A DNA stretch of 64,000 bases from positions 18,925 to 82,924 of the IMG/VR virus record IMGVR_UViG_3300037520_002383. One strand, 5' to 3'. Shown here piece by piece: positions 17,021-64,000 of the stretch. A model generated the notes under the pieces. The model did no database searches and was not told the DNA's origin. It was given only the letters and a program-made list of their open reading frames with translations. Source of the DNA: a virus. The stretch's first letter is position 1; the number at the start of each line of letters is the position of its first letter. Made by a program: the position numbers and the translations under genes.

Positions 17021-18370
17021 ATGCCCCGCAAGCCCCGTTCGAAGGTCGCCCATCGCAAGATCTTTGTGCTCGATACCAATGTATTGTTGCATGATCCAAG
17101 AGCCATATTCTCTTTTGGCGACAATGATGTAGTCATCCCCATCTATGTTGTCGAGGAAATCGATACATTCAAGAAGGATGCCAGCGAGCTGGGGCGGAAT
17201 GCGCGGGAAGTTAGCCGCCACCTCGATGAACTGCGGGCCGCGGGCTCTCTGGCCAGAGGCGTGCCGTTGCCCAAGGGCGGCAGCCTGCGGGTGGCCACGA
17301 CGCACCTTGAGCTGCCCGAAGAGGTGACCACCGACCGCGGCCAAGACAGCAAGATCATGGCCGTGGCGTTAGACCTCAGCAGCTGCAGCGACCAGAAGGT
17401 CGTCTTCATCACCAAGGATACGAACCTGCGTATCCGCGCCGACGCCGTCGGCATCTATACCGAGGACTTTGAGCCCGAGCAGGTGGTTGCCATCGATGAC
17501 CTCTATCACGGCTGGCAGGAGATCGATGTCGCCGAGGAAGTCATCCACGACTTCTACACCGCCGGCGCCTGCCGCCTGCCTGATGCCGTCTACGGCCCCA
17601 ACCAGTACCTGTGCCTGAAGGCGCGTGGCAACCCCGGCTACAGCGCCATCGGCCGCGTCAAGCCGGCTGAGGGCGGTGGTTGGCTGCTGGCGCCCTTGGC
17701 TGCACACCCCGGCGGCGTCTGGGGCCTGAAGCCCAAGAACCGGGAGCAGTCGTTTGCCCTCGATGCGCTGATGGACGACGACATCAAACTGGTGACGCTC
17801 GTCGGCAAGGCGGGCTGCGGCAAGACGCTGATGGCCATCGCCGCCGGCCTCGCCAAGGTCACTGACAGCCACAGCTTCCAGAAGCTGCTGGTATCGCGCC
17901 CCGTCTTCCCGCTGGGCCGCGACATCGGCTACCTGCCGGGGACGGTGGAGGAGAAGCTGAACCCCTGGATGCAGCCGATCTTCGACAACGTCGAGTTCCT
18001 GATGGGGCTGACGACGAAGGAGAAGAAGAAGGGCCGCAGCCATAAGGAGTTGATTGATCTGGGTCTGGTGCAGATTGAGCCCCTGACATACATCCGCGGC
18101 CGCAGCATTCCGCAGCAGTACATGATCGTCGACGAGGCGCAGAACCTGACGCCGCATGAAGTCAAGACCATCATCAGCCGCGCCGGCGAGGGCACCAAGA
18201 TCGTGTTGACGGGCGACCCCTACCAGATCGACAACCCCTACGTCGATCAGACCAACAACGGCCTCGTCCACGTCGTCAACCGCTTCCGCGGCGAGAAGAT
18301 CGCGGCGCACGTCATGCTGACGAAGGGCGAGCGGTCGCCGCTGGCTGAGATCGCCACCAACCTGCTGTAG
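17021..18370 (+). CDS. phoH: PIN-PhoH fusion protein (PhoH-like ATPase/ribonuclease)
   Basis: 449 residues, AAAGGAG Shine-Dalgarno. Residues about 10-150 form a PIN nuclease domain with the acidic set FVLDTN (D18), VVEEID (E45/E46) and FITKDTN (D133). Residues about 235-449 form a PhoH ATPase domain with Walker A VGKAGCGKT (261-269), Walker B YMIVDEAQN (367-375), TGDPYQID and a C-terminal arginine region. PIN-PhoH (PhoH2) proteins act as ATP-dependent RNA unwinding nucleases. Full length, all key residues present. In phages the role is probably RNA turnover. Not preceded by a promoter of the leaderless class. Confidence 0.92.
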   Translation: MPRKPRSKVAHRKIFVLDTNVLLHDPRAIFSFGDNDVVIPIYVVEEIDTFKKDASELGRNAREVSRHLDELRAAGSLARGVPLPKGGSLRVATTHLELPEEVTTDRGQDSKIMAVALDLSSCSDQKVVFITKDTNLRIRADAVGIYTEDFEPEQVVAIDDLYHGWQEIDVAEEVIHDFYTAGACRLPDAVYGPNQYLCLKARGNPGYSAIGRVKPAEGGGWLLAPLAAHPGGVWGLKPKNREQSFALDALMDDDIKLVTLVGKAGCGKTLMAIAAGLAKVTDSHSFQKLLVSRPVFPLGRDIGYLPGTVEEKLNPWMQPIFDNVEFLMGLTTKEKKKGRSHKELIDLGLVQIEPLTYIRGRSIPQQYMIVDEAQNLTPHEVKTIISRAGEGTKIVLTGDPYQIDNPYVDQTNNGLVHVVNRFRGEKIAAHVMLTKGERSPLAEIATNLL

Positions 18371-19144: not shown

Positions 19145-19846
19145 ATGACCCAAACAATCACTGCCGAAACTCGCCAGAGACTCACCGAAATCGTCAACGC
19201 CGGCCTCGTCAGTGGGCTCGGCGAAGCCAAGGCTGGAAGCCTTTGCATCGAGGCTGCGATCTGCCTCGCCATGGGTGAGCCGCACTCCGATCGCCCATCG
19301 TGCGTTGCGGAGCCGGATAGGGAGTTTGCGATCAGGATCAATGACGCGAAGTGGTCGTCGAAGGAGGCGAGAACGCAAGCACTGCTGCCGCTCGCCCTCG
19401 CTCAGCTAGGCACGGCTGGCAGCGATCGCACGGCTTGGGTGCAGCGAGTAGCCGAGGGGACGATCCGCCGAATCCTGCCGATTGCGCTGCGCGCTGCGGC
19501 AAGCATGCATCCCCACGAGCGACACCGTGCAGCACTGGAGGATGCCGCGCTGCGATGCGAGCAAGAGGGCACGAGGACCGCCGCCGCCTCCGCCGCCTCC
19601 GCCACCTACGCCGCCGCCTCCGCCGCCTCCTACGCCGCCCGCGCCGACGCCGCCTACGCCGCCGCCGCCCGCGCCGCCGCCTACGCCGCCTACGCCTACG
19701 CCGACGCCTACGCCGACGCCTACGCCGACGCCGCCGCCGACGCCGCCGACGCCGCCGCCGCCGCCTACGCCTCCTACGCCGCCGACGACGTACTGCGACT
19801 TGCGGTGCAGATCGCGCTCGATGCCTATGCGGCTGAGGTGGAGTGA
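19145..19846 (+). CDS. Alanine-repeat protein, paralogue of the gene at 63815
   Basis: 233 residues from ATG 19145 (the ATG at 19136 is in the -10 box). Three parts are visible. First, a conserved N-terminal domain, about 1-120, with RQRLTEIVNAGLVSGLGEA and CIEAAICLAMGEPHSDRPSC. Second, an alanine-rich low-complexity segment, about 145-212, built of AAYA/ADAYA units. Third, a conserved tail DDVLRLAVQIALDAYAAE. The same RCEQEGTRTAAA lead-in and tail occur in the gene at 63815-64000 with a far shorter repeat. Long helical Ala repeats recall immunity-protein-like families, but I cannot name one. GC-rich compared with its surroundings. Confidence 0.75.
   Translation: MTQTITAETRQRLTEIVNAGLVSGLGEAKAGSLCIEAAICLAMGEPHSDRPSCVAEPDREFAIRINDAKWSSKEARTQALLPLALAQLGTAGSDRTAWVQRVAEGTIRRILPIALRAAASMHPHERHRAALEDAALRCEQEGTRTAAASAASATYAAASAASYAARADAAYAAAARAAAYAAYAYADAYADAYADAAADAADAAAAAYASYAADDVLRLAVQIALDAYAAEVE
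19578..19790 (+). repeat. GCC-rich low-complexity tandem repeat in coding sequence
   Basis: About 210 bp made of short in-frame units such as GCCGCC, GCCTACGCC and GCCGACGCCTAC, including a 15-nt unit repeated three times near 19700-19730. Period is a multiple of 3, so length changes keep the frame. It produces long spurious Arg- and Pro-rich frames on other readings. Confidence 0.85.
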
Positions 19847-20127
19847 TGGCTAAAAGGTCACCCGTCGACAAAGATACATGGATCGAGTACGCGAGAGGCG
19901 GGCATTGTGGCCTGTGCGGAAACAGCGGCCTCATCAGCATGAGTGGCTTGACGACCCCTGCCGGTACATTATTGGCGGCGCTTGAGAAGGTTCCCTGCAT
20001 CTGTCCGAACGGCAGGACCATCAAGTACGCAAGGGACAAGGCGGCGCCGCCGGCTTCAGCGACTTCGACATCACCCTTGACTGAGGGCTTGACGGCGGCG
20101 GCGGAAGGCTGTAGGCTGGGGGCATGA
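19846..20127 (+). CDS. Small Cys-motif protein whose tail is encoded by a promoter
   Basis: 93 residues from ATG 19846 (TGATG overlap). HCGLCGNSG and CICPNG give a CxxC...CxC zinc-type pattern in the first 60 residues. The last ~13 residues (LTAAAEGCRLGA) are the translation of the next gene's promoter. So the natural end of this protein was probably upstream, or the promoter was inserted into it. Function unknown. Confidence 0.7.
   Translation: MAKRSPVDKDTWIEYARGGHCGLCGNSGLISMSGLTTPAGTLLAALEKVPCICPNGRTIKYARDKAAPPASATSTSPLTEGLTAAAEGCRLGA
20089..20117 (+). promoter_or_regulatory. Sigma70-like promoter, leaderless type
   Basis: TTGACG 20089-20094, 17-bp spacer, TAGGCT 20112-20117, 6 nt to ATG 20124. 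Fully inside the 3' end of the previous gene. Confidence 0.8.
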
Positions 20128-41121: not shown

Positions 41122-44106
41122 TTATGTGTATTGCAAGTAAATGTCGCCATCGTTGCCGCCGCTTGGCGCCGCGGTTCCACTCGTCACAAGATTAGACCAA
41201 GTACCGTCGGCGCGCAGGAATGCCGTGGTGCCGCCACCAGAGGCTGGGGCCAAACCCTTCAGGCTGCTGGTGAAGACATCAAGGAGCGCCGTGGCCTGAG
41301 TTCCAGTCAAGTCCTCGGGTGAGCCGCTGCCGGCAGTCGTTCGCCCCTTGATTGTAGCCGTAGAAACATTAGCGAGTTTGGCATTGGTGACGACCGTGTT
41401 GTCGATTGTCCAGACGCTGCCGCTGGAGCTGACTGTGATATCACCCTTGTCGCCATCAGCAACGCTGGCGCTGGGGGCCGCCCAAGTGCCGTCAGCACGC
41501 AGGAAGTTGGCTGTGCCGCCACCAGAGGCTGGGGCCAGCCCCTTCAAGCTGCTACTAAAAACATCCAGAAGTGCCGTGGCTTGAGCACCAGTCAAGTCCT
41601 CAGGTGAGCCGCTGCCGGCAGTCGTTCGCCCCTTGATTGTAGCCGTAGCAACGTCAGCCAACTTGGCGTTGGTGACGACCGTGTTGTCGATTGTCCAGAC
41701 GCTGCCGCTGGAGCTGACTGTGATATCACCCTTGTCGCCATCGGCGATAGTAGCCGTAATCGTTTGCCAAGTTACTGATCCCGAGCCATTGGTTCGCAGA
41801 ACTTGATTGGCTGTGCCATCGGTAAGTGGCAGGGTGAACGCACCAATAGTGAATCCCGTGCTCGTTACCAACAGGCGCTGCGCGCCGGCAGTAGCAATCG
41901 CCAACTGATCTGCGGCGGGTCGATATACACCAGTACCCACGCTATTGATAAAGGCCAGGGATGGATTGGCTGCCGTACCGTCGGCTACCAGCGTCTGACT
42001 CAATCCATTGAGCCTCATGATATCGCCGGTATTATTGGTGACGCGGAAGGCGAATCTATCGGCTGCCGTACTTACGGGCGTTGAGACCAAAACCGACGTG
42101 CGATTGGCTGCCGCCGCCGCCGAACCCGTGATCGTGATGCCGTTGTCGGTTGATGTAGCAGTGGCGCTGGAAATAAAAAAGCCGCGGCTGCCGGCGCCAC
42201 TGGCCGCAGAGATAAACAGGTCGTTTGCCGAGGCAGTAGTCAGGGTCGGCGCAGTAAGCGACGGCGTGGTCTTGTTGATAGTCAGGGTATTGGTCAGCGG
42301 TCCATTGCTTGTGTCGAGCTTGAGATACAGCAGATCGGCGGCGGCTTGCGTGAATGATCCAGGAGGCGCCGCCCAGGTGCCGTCAGCGCGCAGGTAGTTG
42401 GCGGTGCCGCCTCCTGATGAAGGCGCCAGCCCCTTGAGGGTACTGGTGAAGACGTCAAGGAGCGCCGTCGCCTGCGTACCCGTCAAGTCTTCGGGTGAAC
42501 CACTGCCGGCAGTCGTACGACCCTTGAAGGTTGCTGTAGCAACGTTAGCTAACTTGGCGTTGGTGACGACGGTGTTGTCGATTGTCCAGACGCCACCACC
42601 GGAACTGACAGTGATATCACCCTTGTCCCCATCCGTGACGCCGCCGCCACCGGGTGGTACCGCCCAGGTGCCGTCAGCGCGCAGGTAGTTGGTGGTACCG
42701 CCTCCTGATGAAGGCGCTAGGCCCTTGAGTGTCGACGTAAAGACATCCAACAGCGCCGTCGCCTGAGCCGTAGTCAGGTCTTCGGGCGATCCCGTGCCGG
42801 CAGTCGTTCGCCCCTTGATCGTGGCCGTAGCGACGTTAGCCAACTTGGCGTTGGTCACTGCCGCGTTATCGATTGTCCAAGTGGCGCCGCTGGCCGAAAC
42901 CGTAATATCGCCCTTGTCGCCATCCGTAACGGGAATGATGTTGTCTAGGGCGTCCAGGGCAGATTGTACGGTGGTATTGGCCGACGACAGGATGTTATTG
43001 AAGTTAGTCGTAGAAGTATAGATGGCCGAAGCGGGGTGATCTAAGGCATCAAGATCCGAGAGATTGCTGTGGCTAGAAACCGACCCAAGGGGCAGCTCCC
43101 CCAGAGGCCGAAAATCCACATACGGCTGCCCCGTATCGGTGCTGCGAATGCGGGCATTGGGCACGTTGGTGTAGGAATCGGTTTGAAATATGACCGATCC
43201 CAGAGGCACGAACTCGCTAAAAGGCAGCCCCGTAACTGAAGAAATCTCGGAAGACGCACCGGTTCTGGCGTCGCTAATGCTGTTATATGAAGTAATGCCG
43301 TGGATGCCAACGATTGGCTCATTGATGTTGTTGGTGGCAAAGTAGTGCACCAAAACGTAGTTGAAGTTAGGCAACTCAGCAAGCGACCAAACGCCGCCGC
43401 TATTTTGATTGAATGGAAGTCGCCCATTGGGGCCCGTGTAACCGGCCGTGCCGCTATAGATCACGGGATAGGTATCAGCTGCTTTACGACGCCAAACGCC
43501 GGCTCCGCTGCCTGTTCGGTAGTAGATCGGAATCTGAGCTATCGGCGACAGGGTCTGCGGGGAGCCATTGACGGTGGTGTGCTGAAGATCTTCATCGTAA
43601 AACGTACCATTGGCGCATGACAACTGCGCATGCGACGCCAGACTCCCATTGTCGTCCACAGTAAAGTCGCCGAGCGCGTATCCCGAAAGATAAACGGCAC
43701 CAATGCTGTTATGAAGATATGAATGCGTAGCGCCATCCATCGTCAGGCCATGGCGCTCTTCTGCAAAGTAGATGGCGGCGGCGTTAGTCGCATCCCAATA
43801 GAGTGCAGCCACAAACGCATATTCTCTGATGATTGCTGAGGTAAAAACATTTGTGGCCTGAAGCGTGCCCGTGTTGTCAAAATAAAAATACCACAACCCT
43901 TCGGTGTTGGTGATTACGACGCTTTGTGTGGTTGATTTGATGTATTTTACGCCTACGACAAAAAACTCAAAAAATGATCCAGTCGGGGCGATGGAGAAAG
44001 TGCGCGAGCCGTTATTGAATGAAATGGTCGAATCAGTCCTATTGGGAAAGCCCGTGGGCTCCTTGGACATTCGACGTTCTTCGCGTAGAGTAGGATCGTA
44101 TGTCAT
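41122..44106 (-). CDS. Tail fibre protein with tandem ~95-residue repeats
   Basis: 994 residues; GGGAG Shine-Dalgarno. N-terminal half contains FNNGSRTFSIAPTGSFFEFFV and LWYFYFDNTG, a beta-sandwich used by fibre proteins of large myophages. Four copies of a ~95-residue module follow (starts near residues 395, 492, 789, 884), each DGDKGDITVSSSG-VWTIDN-VVTNAKLA-TIKGRTTAG-GSPEDLTG-ATALLDVF-LKGLAP-SGGGT-LRADGTWA. Between copies 2 and 3 lies a distinct ~200-residue domain. Likely receptor-binding fibre. Repeats make recombination-driven change likely. Confidence 0.82.
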   Translation of the reverse strand: MTYDPTLREERRMSKEPTGFPNRTDSTISFNNGSRTFSIAPTGSFFEFFVVGVKYIKSTTQSVVITNTEGLWYFYFDNTGTLQATNVFTSAIIREYAFVAALYWDATNAAAIYFAEERHGLTMDGATHSYLHNSIGAVYLSGYALGDFTVDDNGSLASHAQLSCANGTFYDEDLQHTTVNGSPQTLSPIAQIPIYYRTGSGAGVWRRKAADTYPVIYSGTAGYTGPNGRLPFNQNSGGVWSLAELPNFNYVLVHYFATNNINEPIVGIHGITSYNSISDARTGASSEISSVTGLPFSEFVPLGSVIFQTDSYTNVPNARIRSTDTGQPYVDFRPLGELPLGSVSSHSNLSDLDALDHPASAIYTSTTNFNNILSSANTTVQSALDALDNIIPVTDGDKGDITVSASGATWTIDNAAVTNAKLANVATATIKGRTTAGTGSPEDLTTAQATALLDVFTSTLKGLAPSSGGGTTNYLRADGTWAVPPGGGGVTDGDKGDITVSSGGGVWTIDNTVVTNAKLANVATATFKGRTTAGSGSPEDLTGTQATALLDVFTSTLKGLAPSSGGGTANYLRADGTWAAPPGSFTQAAADLLYLKLDTSNGPLTNTLTINKTTPSLTAPTLTTASANDLFISAASGAGSRGFFISSATATSTDNGITITGSAAAAANRTSVLVSTPVSTAADRFAFRVTNNTGDIMRLNGLSQTLVADGTAANPSLAFINSVGTGVYRPAADQLAIATAGAQRLLVTSTGFTIGAFTLPLTDGTANQVLRTNGSGSVTWQTITATIADGDKGDITVSSSGSVWTIDNTVVTNAKLADVATATIKGRTTAGSGSPEDLTGAQATALLDVFSSSLKGLAPASGGGTANFLRADGTWAAPSASVADGDKGDITVSSSGSVWTIDNTVVTNAKLANVSTATIKGRTTAGSGSPEDLTGTQATALLDVFTSSLKGLAPASGGGTTAFLRADGTWSNLVTSGTAAPSGGNDGDIYLQYT
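41180..41742 (-). repeat. Tail fibre repeat pair (copies 3 and 4)
   Basis: Two direct copies of a ~285-bp unit, starting at 41742 and 41457 on the minus strand, nearly identical in DNA across the GDKGDITVSSSGSVWTIDN and SPEDLTG parts. Confidence 0.85.
42360..42924 (-). repeat. Tail fibre repeat pair (copies 1 and 2)
   Basis: Two direct copies of the same unit, starting at 42924 and 42633 (291 bp apart), within the same fibre gene. Confidence 0.85.
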
Positions 44107-62774: not shown

Positions 62775-63488
62775 TCAATCCTCCTTCAGCAGTGATGGTG
62801 ACCAGTGACTGAAATACCGCGGCATCTCAGGCTGGATGACTTGCCACATCTTTGTGACGAGAATGCGGAACTCCTTGTCGGCGACCTCAGCATCGCGGCG
62901 CGGGAACATTTGCAAAAAAGCCGCAGCGTTGCCGCTCCACGTCAGTCGCGTCTCGATGCCGTTCGGCAGGATGCGAGCCGCAGCGCCCTGAGCCGTTTTC
63001 CGGTCATGCCCCTTGGCCACCATGTGCTCCACGACGCCCCTGTAGGCGTTTCGCCAAGCGCTATCAAACTTCGCTAGTTTCTCGTGCAACTCAGGCGACA
63101 AGTCATCGAGATCTGGATGCATCATCACCCGCGACTCGGCCTCGGAAACGTAACGGGTGCTGCGTTGGCTGGGGCTGAAACCGACGTGATGCCGCACAAG
63201 CTCGTGGCTCAGATTGCGGGTAACGCCCGTGATCCACAGCACGAAGTGGCTGTGGTAAAGCACGTTTGGATGATAGTGCTCCAAGATATTTGCATGAAAG
63301 TCATCGCTGTTGCGGCCTCGGCCAAAGGAGTCGTAGCAACCGCGACCTGCAAACTCGGCGATTTTTTCGCCTTCCGTCCCTTGCATTTGATCGGGACGAC
63401 AACGCCGGAACTCCTCGATGTCATCGCCGACAAAAGAGGGTCTGGCAATCAAGCGAACGCTAATCGGAGAAGAATCAATCTGAGTCAT
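62775..63488 (-). CDS. thyX: Flavin-dependent thymidylate synthase ThyX
   Basis: 237 residues, a usual length. Signature ELVRHHVGFSPSQRSTRYV fits the ThyX motif RHRxxSxNxxSxR with RHH in place of RHR. Also present: CYDSFGRGRNSDDFHANILEHYHPNVLYHSHFVLWITGV, and ETRLTWSGNAAAFLQMFPRRDAEVADKEFR in the C-terminal half. Makes dTMP from dUMP with methylene-THF, FAD and NADPH. Phage ThyX raises thymidylate supply during replication. It partners functionally with the dNMP kinase at 33110. Confidence 0.92.
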   Translation of the reverse strand: MTQIDSSPISVRLIARPSFVGDDIEEFRRCRPDQMQGTEGEKIAEFAGRGCYDSFGRGRNSDDFHANILEHYHPNVLYHSHFVLWITGVTRNLSHELVRHHVGFSPSQRSTRYVSEAESRVMMHPDLDDLSPELHEKLAKFDSAWRNAYRGVVEHMVAKGHDRKTAQGAAARILPNGIETRLTWSGNAAAFLQMFPRRDAEVADKEFRILVTKMWQVIQPEMPRYFSHWSPSLLKED

Positions 63489-63491
63489 TTA

Positions 63492-63818
63492 CTATCCTTT
63501 GGTTGGTGTGATATCAGATTCGTCCTTCAGCTGCGTAGGCGTCGAGCGCGATCTGCACGGCGAGGCACAGCGCGTCGTCACCGACGGCGCGAGCGGCGTT
63601 GGCGTCGGCGGCGTCTCCTTCAAGTCGAGCACAAGCACTCCCGGCTCCGCTTCTTCGCTGTGGCGCTCGATGCCCCGGTTCACGTCGGCCACGGTGCAGC
63701 CGCAGCGCGGGCACTTGGCGACCTCGACGGGGTGCTCCAACTTCGTCTGCGCGATCCAAGCGGTGTAGAACTCATGGCCGACGACCATCGGCATCTGGCA
63801 TGGCAGGCACACGATCAT
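63492..63818 (-). CDS. Zinc-ribbon-type protein with scrambled C-terminus
   Basis: 108 residues from ATG 63818, overlapping the stop of the upstream gene (ATGA). CLPCQMP (about 4-10) and KCPRCGC (about 35-41) make a CxxC...CxxC ribbon in an otherwise aromatic domain. After the linker KETPPTPTPLAP the reading frame passes over DNA that, in another frame, encodes DDALCLAVQIALDAYAAE, the tail of the Ala-repeat family. So the C-terminus is probably out-of-frame sequence captured by rearrangement. Confidence 0.65.
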   Translation of the reverse strand: MIVCLPCQMPMVVGHEFYTAWIAQTKLEHPVEVAKCPRCGCTVADVNRGIERHSEEAEPGVLVLDLKETPPTPTPLAPSVTTRCASPCRSRSTPTQLKDESDITPTKG

Positions 63819-63885
63819 GGCGTCCTTCCTTCGGCAGCGTAGGCATCGAGCGCGATCTGCACCGCAAGTCGCAGTACGTCGTCGG
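63527..63885 (-). repeat. Two direct copies of the Ala-repeat protein tail (~55 bp)
   Basis: The DNA for the tail VQIALDAYAAE occurs near 63530-63585 and again near 63840-63885, highly similar base by base, and also at about 19795-19840 on the plus strand. Only the copies at 19.8 kb and 63.85 kb are in a coding frame. Confidence 0.75.
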
Positions 63886-64000
63886 CGGCGTAGGCGTCGG
63901 AGGCGGCGGAGGCGGCGGCGGCGGCGGTCCTCGTGCCCTCTTGCTCGCATCGGATCGCCGCGGCCTCCAGCGCCGCACGGTGCTGCTCCTTGGAATGCAC
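63815..64000 (-). CDS. Alanine-repeat protein, paralogue of 19145 (5' end outside window)
   Basis: Last ~61 residues of a gene read leftward; the frame is open to the window edge, so the start is probably outside. HRAALEAAAIRCEQEGTRTAAAA matches the lead-in HRAALEDAALRCEQEGTRTAAA of the plus-strand gene at 19145. It then has a short repeat (AAASAASDAYAADD versus ~70 residues there) and the same tail DVLRLAVQIALDAYAAE. It overlaps the zinc-ribbon gene by ATGA. Confidence 0.75.
   Translation of the reverse strand: MHSKEQHRAALEAAAIRCEQEGTRTAAAAASAASDAYAADDVLRLAVQIALDAYAAEGRTP

What the first reader, a model, noticed from the sequence alone, without database searches (positions are those of the whole stretch)
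19145..19846. Length-variable alanine-repeat paralogues at both ends of the window
The gene at 19145 and the partial gene at 63815 share RCEQEGTRTAAA and the tail DVLRLAVQIALDAYAAE, but the Ala-rich repeat between them is ~70 residues in one and ~10 in the other. The DNA repeat is in units of three, so slippage keeps the frame. This looks like phase-free length variation of a helical array, or a fast-evolving immunity-like protein.
Basis: partly seen in the sequence, partly recalled or inferred. Interest (0 to 1): 0.66.

Follow-up and report, generated by a model that had tools for sequence, protein, structure and literature searches.

The report
Phage protein with hypervariable alanine arm
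The gene belongs to an unnamed, widespread family of phage proteins whose ends are strongly conserved but whose alanine-rich middle is rewritten and resized without breaking the reading frame, even between almost identical phages; what the protein does is unknown.

Summary
Gene 19145-19846 has a conserved all-helical N domain, a 68-codon Ala/Tyr/Asp tract and a conserved C-terminal helix. The window is the end of an 82.9-kb virus contig; the "partial gene" at its right edge is cut by the contig end. A decayed third tail lies beside it. The N domain matches no Pfam, PHROGs, NCBIfam or PDB family, but 247 matching stretches occur in IMG/VR, eight in bacterial genomes, and one in an isolate phage (Cr30). 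In 85 complete genes the tract is 3-164 residues long. N and C parts evolve together (rho 0.61); tract length carries no ancestry signal (rho -0.006). Two sets of contigs identical over kilobases differ only by 78 or 96 bp inside the tract, between direct repeats. In one pair with 97-99% identical flanks the tracts are no more alike than shuffled ones. Within a tract nearly all Ala codons are the same, so it grows by DNA slippage or unequal recombination, while selection keeps Tyr/Asp and excludes Pro. AlphaFold puts the C helix in the N-domain core, making the tract an inserted helical arm. "Phase-free length variation" is supported; "immunity-like" is not. Function is unknown.

The parts
19145..19846 (+). 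Family gene, copy 1 (233 aa from ATG19145, or 236 aa from ATG19136; stop 19844-19846)
   Evidence: relatives
19145..19579 (+). Conserved all-helical N part (motifs GLxxGxG, C-x-E-A-A, H-x-D-x-P-x-C-V, N-D-x-x-W, QLG)
19580..19783 (+). Hypervariable Ala-rich tract, 68 codons; almost every codon ends in C (GCC, TAC, GAC, TCC, CGC)
19784..19843 (+). Conserved C-terminal helix DDVLRLAVQIALDAYAAEVE, modelled at pLDDT 86-96
19846..20127 (+). Downstream small CxxC ORF whose ATG overlaps the TGA of copy 1
63815..64000 (-). Copy 2, cut by the contig end: last part of the N region, tract, tail; stop 63815-63817
63884..63925 (-). Short Ala tract of copy 2, 14 codons
63492..63818 (-). CxxC/CxxCxC ORF whose ATG overlaps the stop of copy 2; its 3' end is out of frame with tail remnant 3
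63514..63615 (-). Copy 3: decayed remnant of tract plus tail (DAADANAARAVGDDALCLAVQIALDAYAAEG)

Best explanation
This is an uncharacterised phage accessory protein. A conserved all-helical domain (N part plus C-terminal helix) carries, between its last two core helices, an inserted arm of Ala-rich helix. The DNA of the arm is a coding mini-/microsatellite of 3-, 6- and 9-bp codon units. Replication slippage or unequal recombination between its direct repeats makes it grow, shrink and be rewritten much faster than the rest of the gene, always by whole codons, so the protein is never put out of frame. Selection on the protein keeps the arm helix-compatible (Ala; Tyr, Asp and Ser favoured; Pro almost absent) but not its length or order. 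Shown: family, architecture, hypervariability, frame keeping, codon homogeneity, residue bias. Inferred: slippage or recombination as the cause; the helical hairpin form of the arm. Guessed: that the protein acts early in infection through its conserved domain, with the arm as a surface extension that contacts a host or phage partner.
For: Family: 123 and 247 matching stretches in IMG/VR, 8 in genome contigs, 1 isolate phage. Architecture: in 85 complete genes the tract is 3-164 residues long; in the first 61 the N part is about 148 and the C part a median 35 residues. Variation: L013/L014 and L031/L033 have no mismatch over 4.4 and 7.7 kb of flank but differ by 96 and 78 bp in the tract, at 19- and 52-bp direct repeats. 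L161/L164 have 97-99% identical flanks but tract identity only at the codon-shuffled level (161 v mean 155, max 161). L043 carries a multi-codon block repeated exactly, with a longest exact repeat of 169 bp. N identity tracks C identity (rho 0.605) but not tract-length difference (rho -0.006). DNA level: Ala-codon entropy is 0.38 bit in tracts v 1.79 elsewhere, 68 of 68 genes. Protein level: 498 Tyr and 454 Asp v 1 Pro, although Pro is one step from every Ala codon and Tyr at least two. Fold: window protein pTM 0.84; short-tract member L025 pLDDT 95.8, pTM 0.89, with the C helices at 97-98.
Against: Only two near-identical pairs show a clean indel, and both are metagenome assemblies. Contacts between the C helix and the N domain were not measured, because no coordinates were available; they are read from confidence values. 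AlphaFold on poly-Ala is unreliable (pLDDT 60-70 over most of the tract). Nothing shows when the gene is expressed or what it binds; early-region context is seen only in part of the loci.
Confidence: 0.75

Rival explanations
1. Neutral spacer: the arm does nothing specific; the fold tolerates any helix-compatible insert at this loop, and the satellite DNA drifts freely.
For: Lengths from 3 to 164 with no ancestry signal; a few members almost lack the tract (L077, 7-9 Ala); different spacing classes (2, 3, 4) argue against one fixed helix face.
Against: Strong residue bias (Tyr, Asp and Ser kept; Pro, Gly and Val low although one step away) and persistence of a long tract in most members (median 62).
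Confidence: 0.4
2. Diversifying recognition or evasion arm: tract changes are selected because the arm meets a varying host or rival-phage factor (counter-defence or host takeover).
For: Complete tract turnover between phages with 97-99% identical flanks; loci often lie near early or recombination genes; Tyr/Asp-rich surfaces are common in binding interfaces (general knowledge).
Against: No partner, no defence or anti-defence match, no functional data; satellite DNA can turn over without selection.
Confidence: 0.3
3. Cassette exchange: tracts are swapped whole between phages by recombination in the conserved flanks.
For: L161/L164 and L171/L174 differ completely in the tract with conserved edges.
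Against: No long tract segment is shared between phages with unrelated N domains; such matches stay below about 56 bp of low-complexity sequence. Deletion pairs and the L043 repeat point to repeat-internal events.
Confidence: 0.15
4. Assembly artefact: length differences come from collapsed repeats in short-read assemblies.
For: 23 of 80 contigs end within 400 bp after the N domain v 1 of 80 within 400 bp before it, so the tract does trouble assemblers.
Against: Junction repeats are 19 and 52 bp, shorter than usual reads. Divergence of tract sequence, two lengths within one contig, and length scatter among distant genes are not explained.
Confidence: 0.06
5. Immunity-type protein (Imm5-like Ala-rich helical proteins) or DGR-diversified protein.
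For: Ala-rich helices; hypervariability.
Against: No Pfam or NCBIfam match; no RVT_1 reverse transcriptase in 11 carrier genomes, with positive controls; length varies, which DGR regions do not do.
Confidence: 0.02

Closest known systems
Caulobacter phage Cr30 gp001 (YP_009098759.1)
   Same: Same family: N domain 43% identical over residues 1-77, Ala/Asp/Tyr tract, C-terminal part
   Different: Large 156-kb phage; annotated only as hypothetical; tract sequence unrelated
Coding minisatellites with phase-free length variation (for example collagen-like repeats of phage tail fibres; general knowledge)
   Same: Tandem codon units, copy number changes keep the frame, arrays homogenised within a gene
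   Different: Not a virion fibre as far as seen; imperfect 3/6/9-bp units; arm inserted inside a conserved helical domain; loci often near early or recombination genes
Gordonia phage OneUp gp80 family, next to RecT
   Same: Foldseek prob 0.82, rmsd 2.6 over 95 columns; C-x(n)-G-x(n)-P-x-C-x(n)-ND motif aligned almost without gaps; near RecT
   Different: No Ala tract; profile match weak (E 0.01-0.08, probability 1-4%), so homology is a lead only
Diversity-generating retroelement targets
   Same: Hypervariable segment between conserved parts in a phage gene
   Different: No reverse transcriptase; length changes, codon homogeneity

Membership tests
Cr30-gp001-like phage family (defined here) | N domain with GLxxGxG, CxEAA, HxDxPxCV, NDxxW, QLG | tested here: met
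Cr30-gp001-like phage family (defined here) | Ala-rich tract followed by conserved C-terminal helix | tested here: met
Coding minisatellite / phase-free VNTR | Tandem codon units in the DNA | tested here: met
   TRF periods 6 and 9 in the window; strict hexamer and nonamer units in L013, L024
Coding minisatellite / phase-free VNTR | In-frame copy-number change between near-identical genomes | tested here: met
   L013/L014, L031/L033; not shown for the window phage itself, only between its two copies
Coding minisatellite / phase-free VNTR | Length change seen within one phage stock | not testable with these tools
   needs reads
Immunity proteins (Imm5-like) | Match to a curated immunity family | tested here: not met
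DGR target | Reverse transcriptase in the carrier genome | tested here: not met
   (virus contigs may be incomplete)
Known alpha-solenoid or other solved fold | Foldseek match to PDB | tested here: not met
   no hit at E<=0.001 for long- or short-tract models
OneUp gp80 family | Significant profile-profile match | tested here: inconclusive
Known defence or anti-defence proteins | Consistent PADLOC match | tested here: not met
   three single-member weak hits of 38 members; anti-defence libraries were not available

The most novel reading that the evidence does not exclude
A widespread phage protein family uses satellite DNA inside a gene as a built-in, reverse-transcriptase-free diversity generator: a helical arm on a conserved early protein whose length and sequence are rewritten continually to keep ahead of a host factor.
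Probability: 0.2. Interest if true: 0.82.

Novelty: new variant of a known kind. Interest (0 to 1): 0.57.

Why it matters
Phages are usually thought to diversify proteins by point mutation, recombination or DGRs. A large, unannotated family (247 matching stretches in IMG/VR, missing from Pfam and PHROGs) in which a coding satellite is resized and rewritten in near-identical phages offers an easy natural system for measuring how fast a virus can reshape a helical protein without losing frame, and whether that is selected. It also offers an explanation for why many virus contigs break at this gene.

Tried and rejected
DNA searches of the phage collection with the locus gave nothing, and an exact tail 41-mer is absent from other IMG/VR contigs. 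Pfam, NCBIfam, PHROGs and PADLOC give only chance-level or Ala-driven single-member hits. PDB sequence and fold searches give only Ala-rich helix-bundle noise such as the vinculin tail and dihydrodipicolinate synthase. DGR was rejected for lack of a reverse transcriptase. A conserved operon partner was looked for: the window's CxxC downstream gene is not general (11 of 67 loci have any CxxC downstream ORF). Donor cassettes were not found. A plasmid search was empty. Paper searches found nothing on such a family.

Full report
What is in the window. The gene 19145-19846 (+) encodes a conserved N part, an Ala-rich tract of 68 codons (19580-19783) and a 20-residue tail. The tract is not chance: its Ala-run score is 26 against at most 8.25 in shuffles and 8.25 for the next best real stretch. 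The window is bases 18925-82924 of an 82,924-bp linear virus record. The second copy, on the minus strand at 63815-64000, is therefore cut by the contig end. It has the same flanks with only 14 tract codons, and shares 55 exact bases across the tail. A third, decayed tail lies at about 63514-63615, out of frame behind a CxxC ORF.

The family. Searching with the N part, not the low-complexity tract, gave 3 relatives from one sequence, then 123 and 247 matching stretches in IMG/VR from alignments, 8 in bacterial genome contigs such as Devosia, Bradyrhizobium and Afipia, and one isolate phage, Caulobacter phage Cr30 gp001. Two scans overlap; after removing duplicates I worked with 121 distinct members, 85 of them complete. 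Every carrier genome checked with the profile has one N domain. The family has no consistent match in Pfam, NCBIfam, PHROGs or PADLOC. Among 121 N domains, G23, L24, G29, C37, E39, D52, P54, C56, V57, R62, N69, W73 and Q90 (numbering from 19136) are invariant; those inside the search patterns (C37, E39, N69, W73) are partly so by selection.

The tract is hypervariable. In 85 complete genes it spans 3-164 residues, median 62. In a first set of 61 the N part is about 148 residues long and the C part a median 35. N identity predicts C identity (Spearman 0.605) but not tract-length difference (-0.006), and nearest neighbours do not resemble each other in tract length (-0.12, not significant). L013 v L014 and L031 v L033 have no mismatch over 4.4 and 7.7 kb of flank, yet differ by exactly one in-frame deletion of 96 or 78 bp whose ends are 19- and 52-bp direct repeats. 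L161 v L164 have 99% identical upstream DNA, 97% N and C parts and 98% downstream, but their tracts are no more alike than after codon shuffling (161 identities v mean 155, maximum 161). L171 v L174 (98% in the first 360 nt) and L063 v L070 (91%) repeat the pattern. L043 was caught with a multi-codon block repeated exactly, giving a longest exact repeat of 169 bp. Assemblies break here: 23 of 80 contigs end within 400 bp after the N domain, 1 of 80 within 400 bp before it. Complete genes never hold an internal exact repeat over 76 bp, so the longest arrays are probably lost and the length range is a lower bound.

DNA process, protein selection. Within one tract almost all Ala codons are identical (entropy 0.38 v 1.79 bits in the rest of the gene, 68 of 68 genes), but the codon chosen differs between genes: GCC, GCT, GCA or GCG. 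Some arrays are strict hexamers or nonamers, for example (NNC GCA)n in L013. That is the mark of local DNA amplification. Yet the residues are not what mutation alone gives: Pro, Val, Thr and Gly are one step from Ala but give 1, 60, 62 and 35 residues, while Tyr (at least two steps) gives 498 and Asp 454. So the protein is under selection for a helix-compatible, Tyr/Asp-bearing tract whose order and length are free.

Structure. AlphaFold with the family alignment gives an all-helical model (pLDDT 86, pTM 0.84), with the tract as helices at pLDDT mostly 60-78 and the C helix at 96. The short-tract member L025 gives pLDDT 95.8 and pTM 0.89, with its C helices at 97-98. I infer that N part and C helices form one core and that the tract is an insertion between them; contacts themselves could not be read. 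No solved fold resembles either model.

Context and function. Neighbours in a minority of loci are Cro-like regulators and early recombination genes such as RecT/ERF-like, exonuclease-like and NinB-like proteins, judged from my own reading of the clustered ORFs rather than a family search. No single partner gene is conserved. A distant look-alike, OneUp gp80 of Gordonia phages, sits next to RecT, but the profile match is too weak to claim kinship. Function is therefore inferred only: an accessory protein probably acting early, with a surface arm.

Verdict. Repeat-driven coding variation is a known kind of process, but this family, and its use as an arm inside a conserved phage domain, appear undescribed in the libraries and papers I could search.

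Noticed in passing
window 41197-42931: Long tandem repeats of about 285-291 bp inside a 994-aa minus-strand ORF (41122-44106), probably a tail or fibre protein with duplicated domains.
   Followed up: no
window 17021-18370: Fused PIN plus PhoH-like ATPase gene shortly upstream of the family gene.
   Followed up: no
window 62775-63488: ThyX-type thymidylate synthase gene next to the second and third copies.
   Followed up: no
L043:4001-4768: Tract with a multi-codon block repeated exactly (longest exact repeat 169 bp), apparently fresh, running into the contig end.
   Followed up: partly
L115:3538-4050 (Gordonia phage OneUp 53538-54050): RecT-adjacent family of Gordonia phages (20 records) with a motif and predicted fold resembling the N domain but no Ala tract.
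   Followed up: partly
window 19846-20127 and 63492-63818: Both copies are followed by a start-stop overlapping small CxxC ORF, of different sequence; this is not general in the family.
   Followed up: yes
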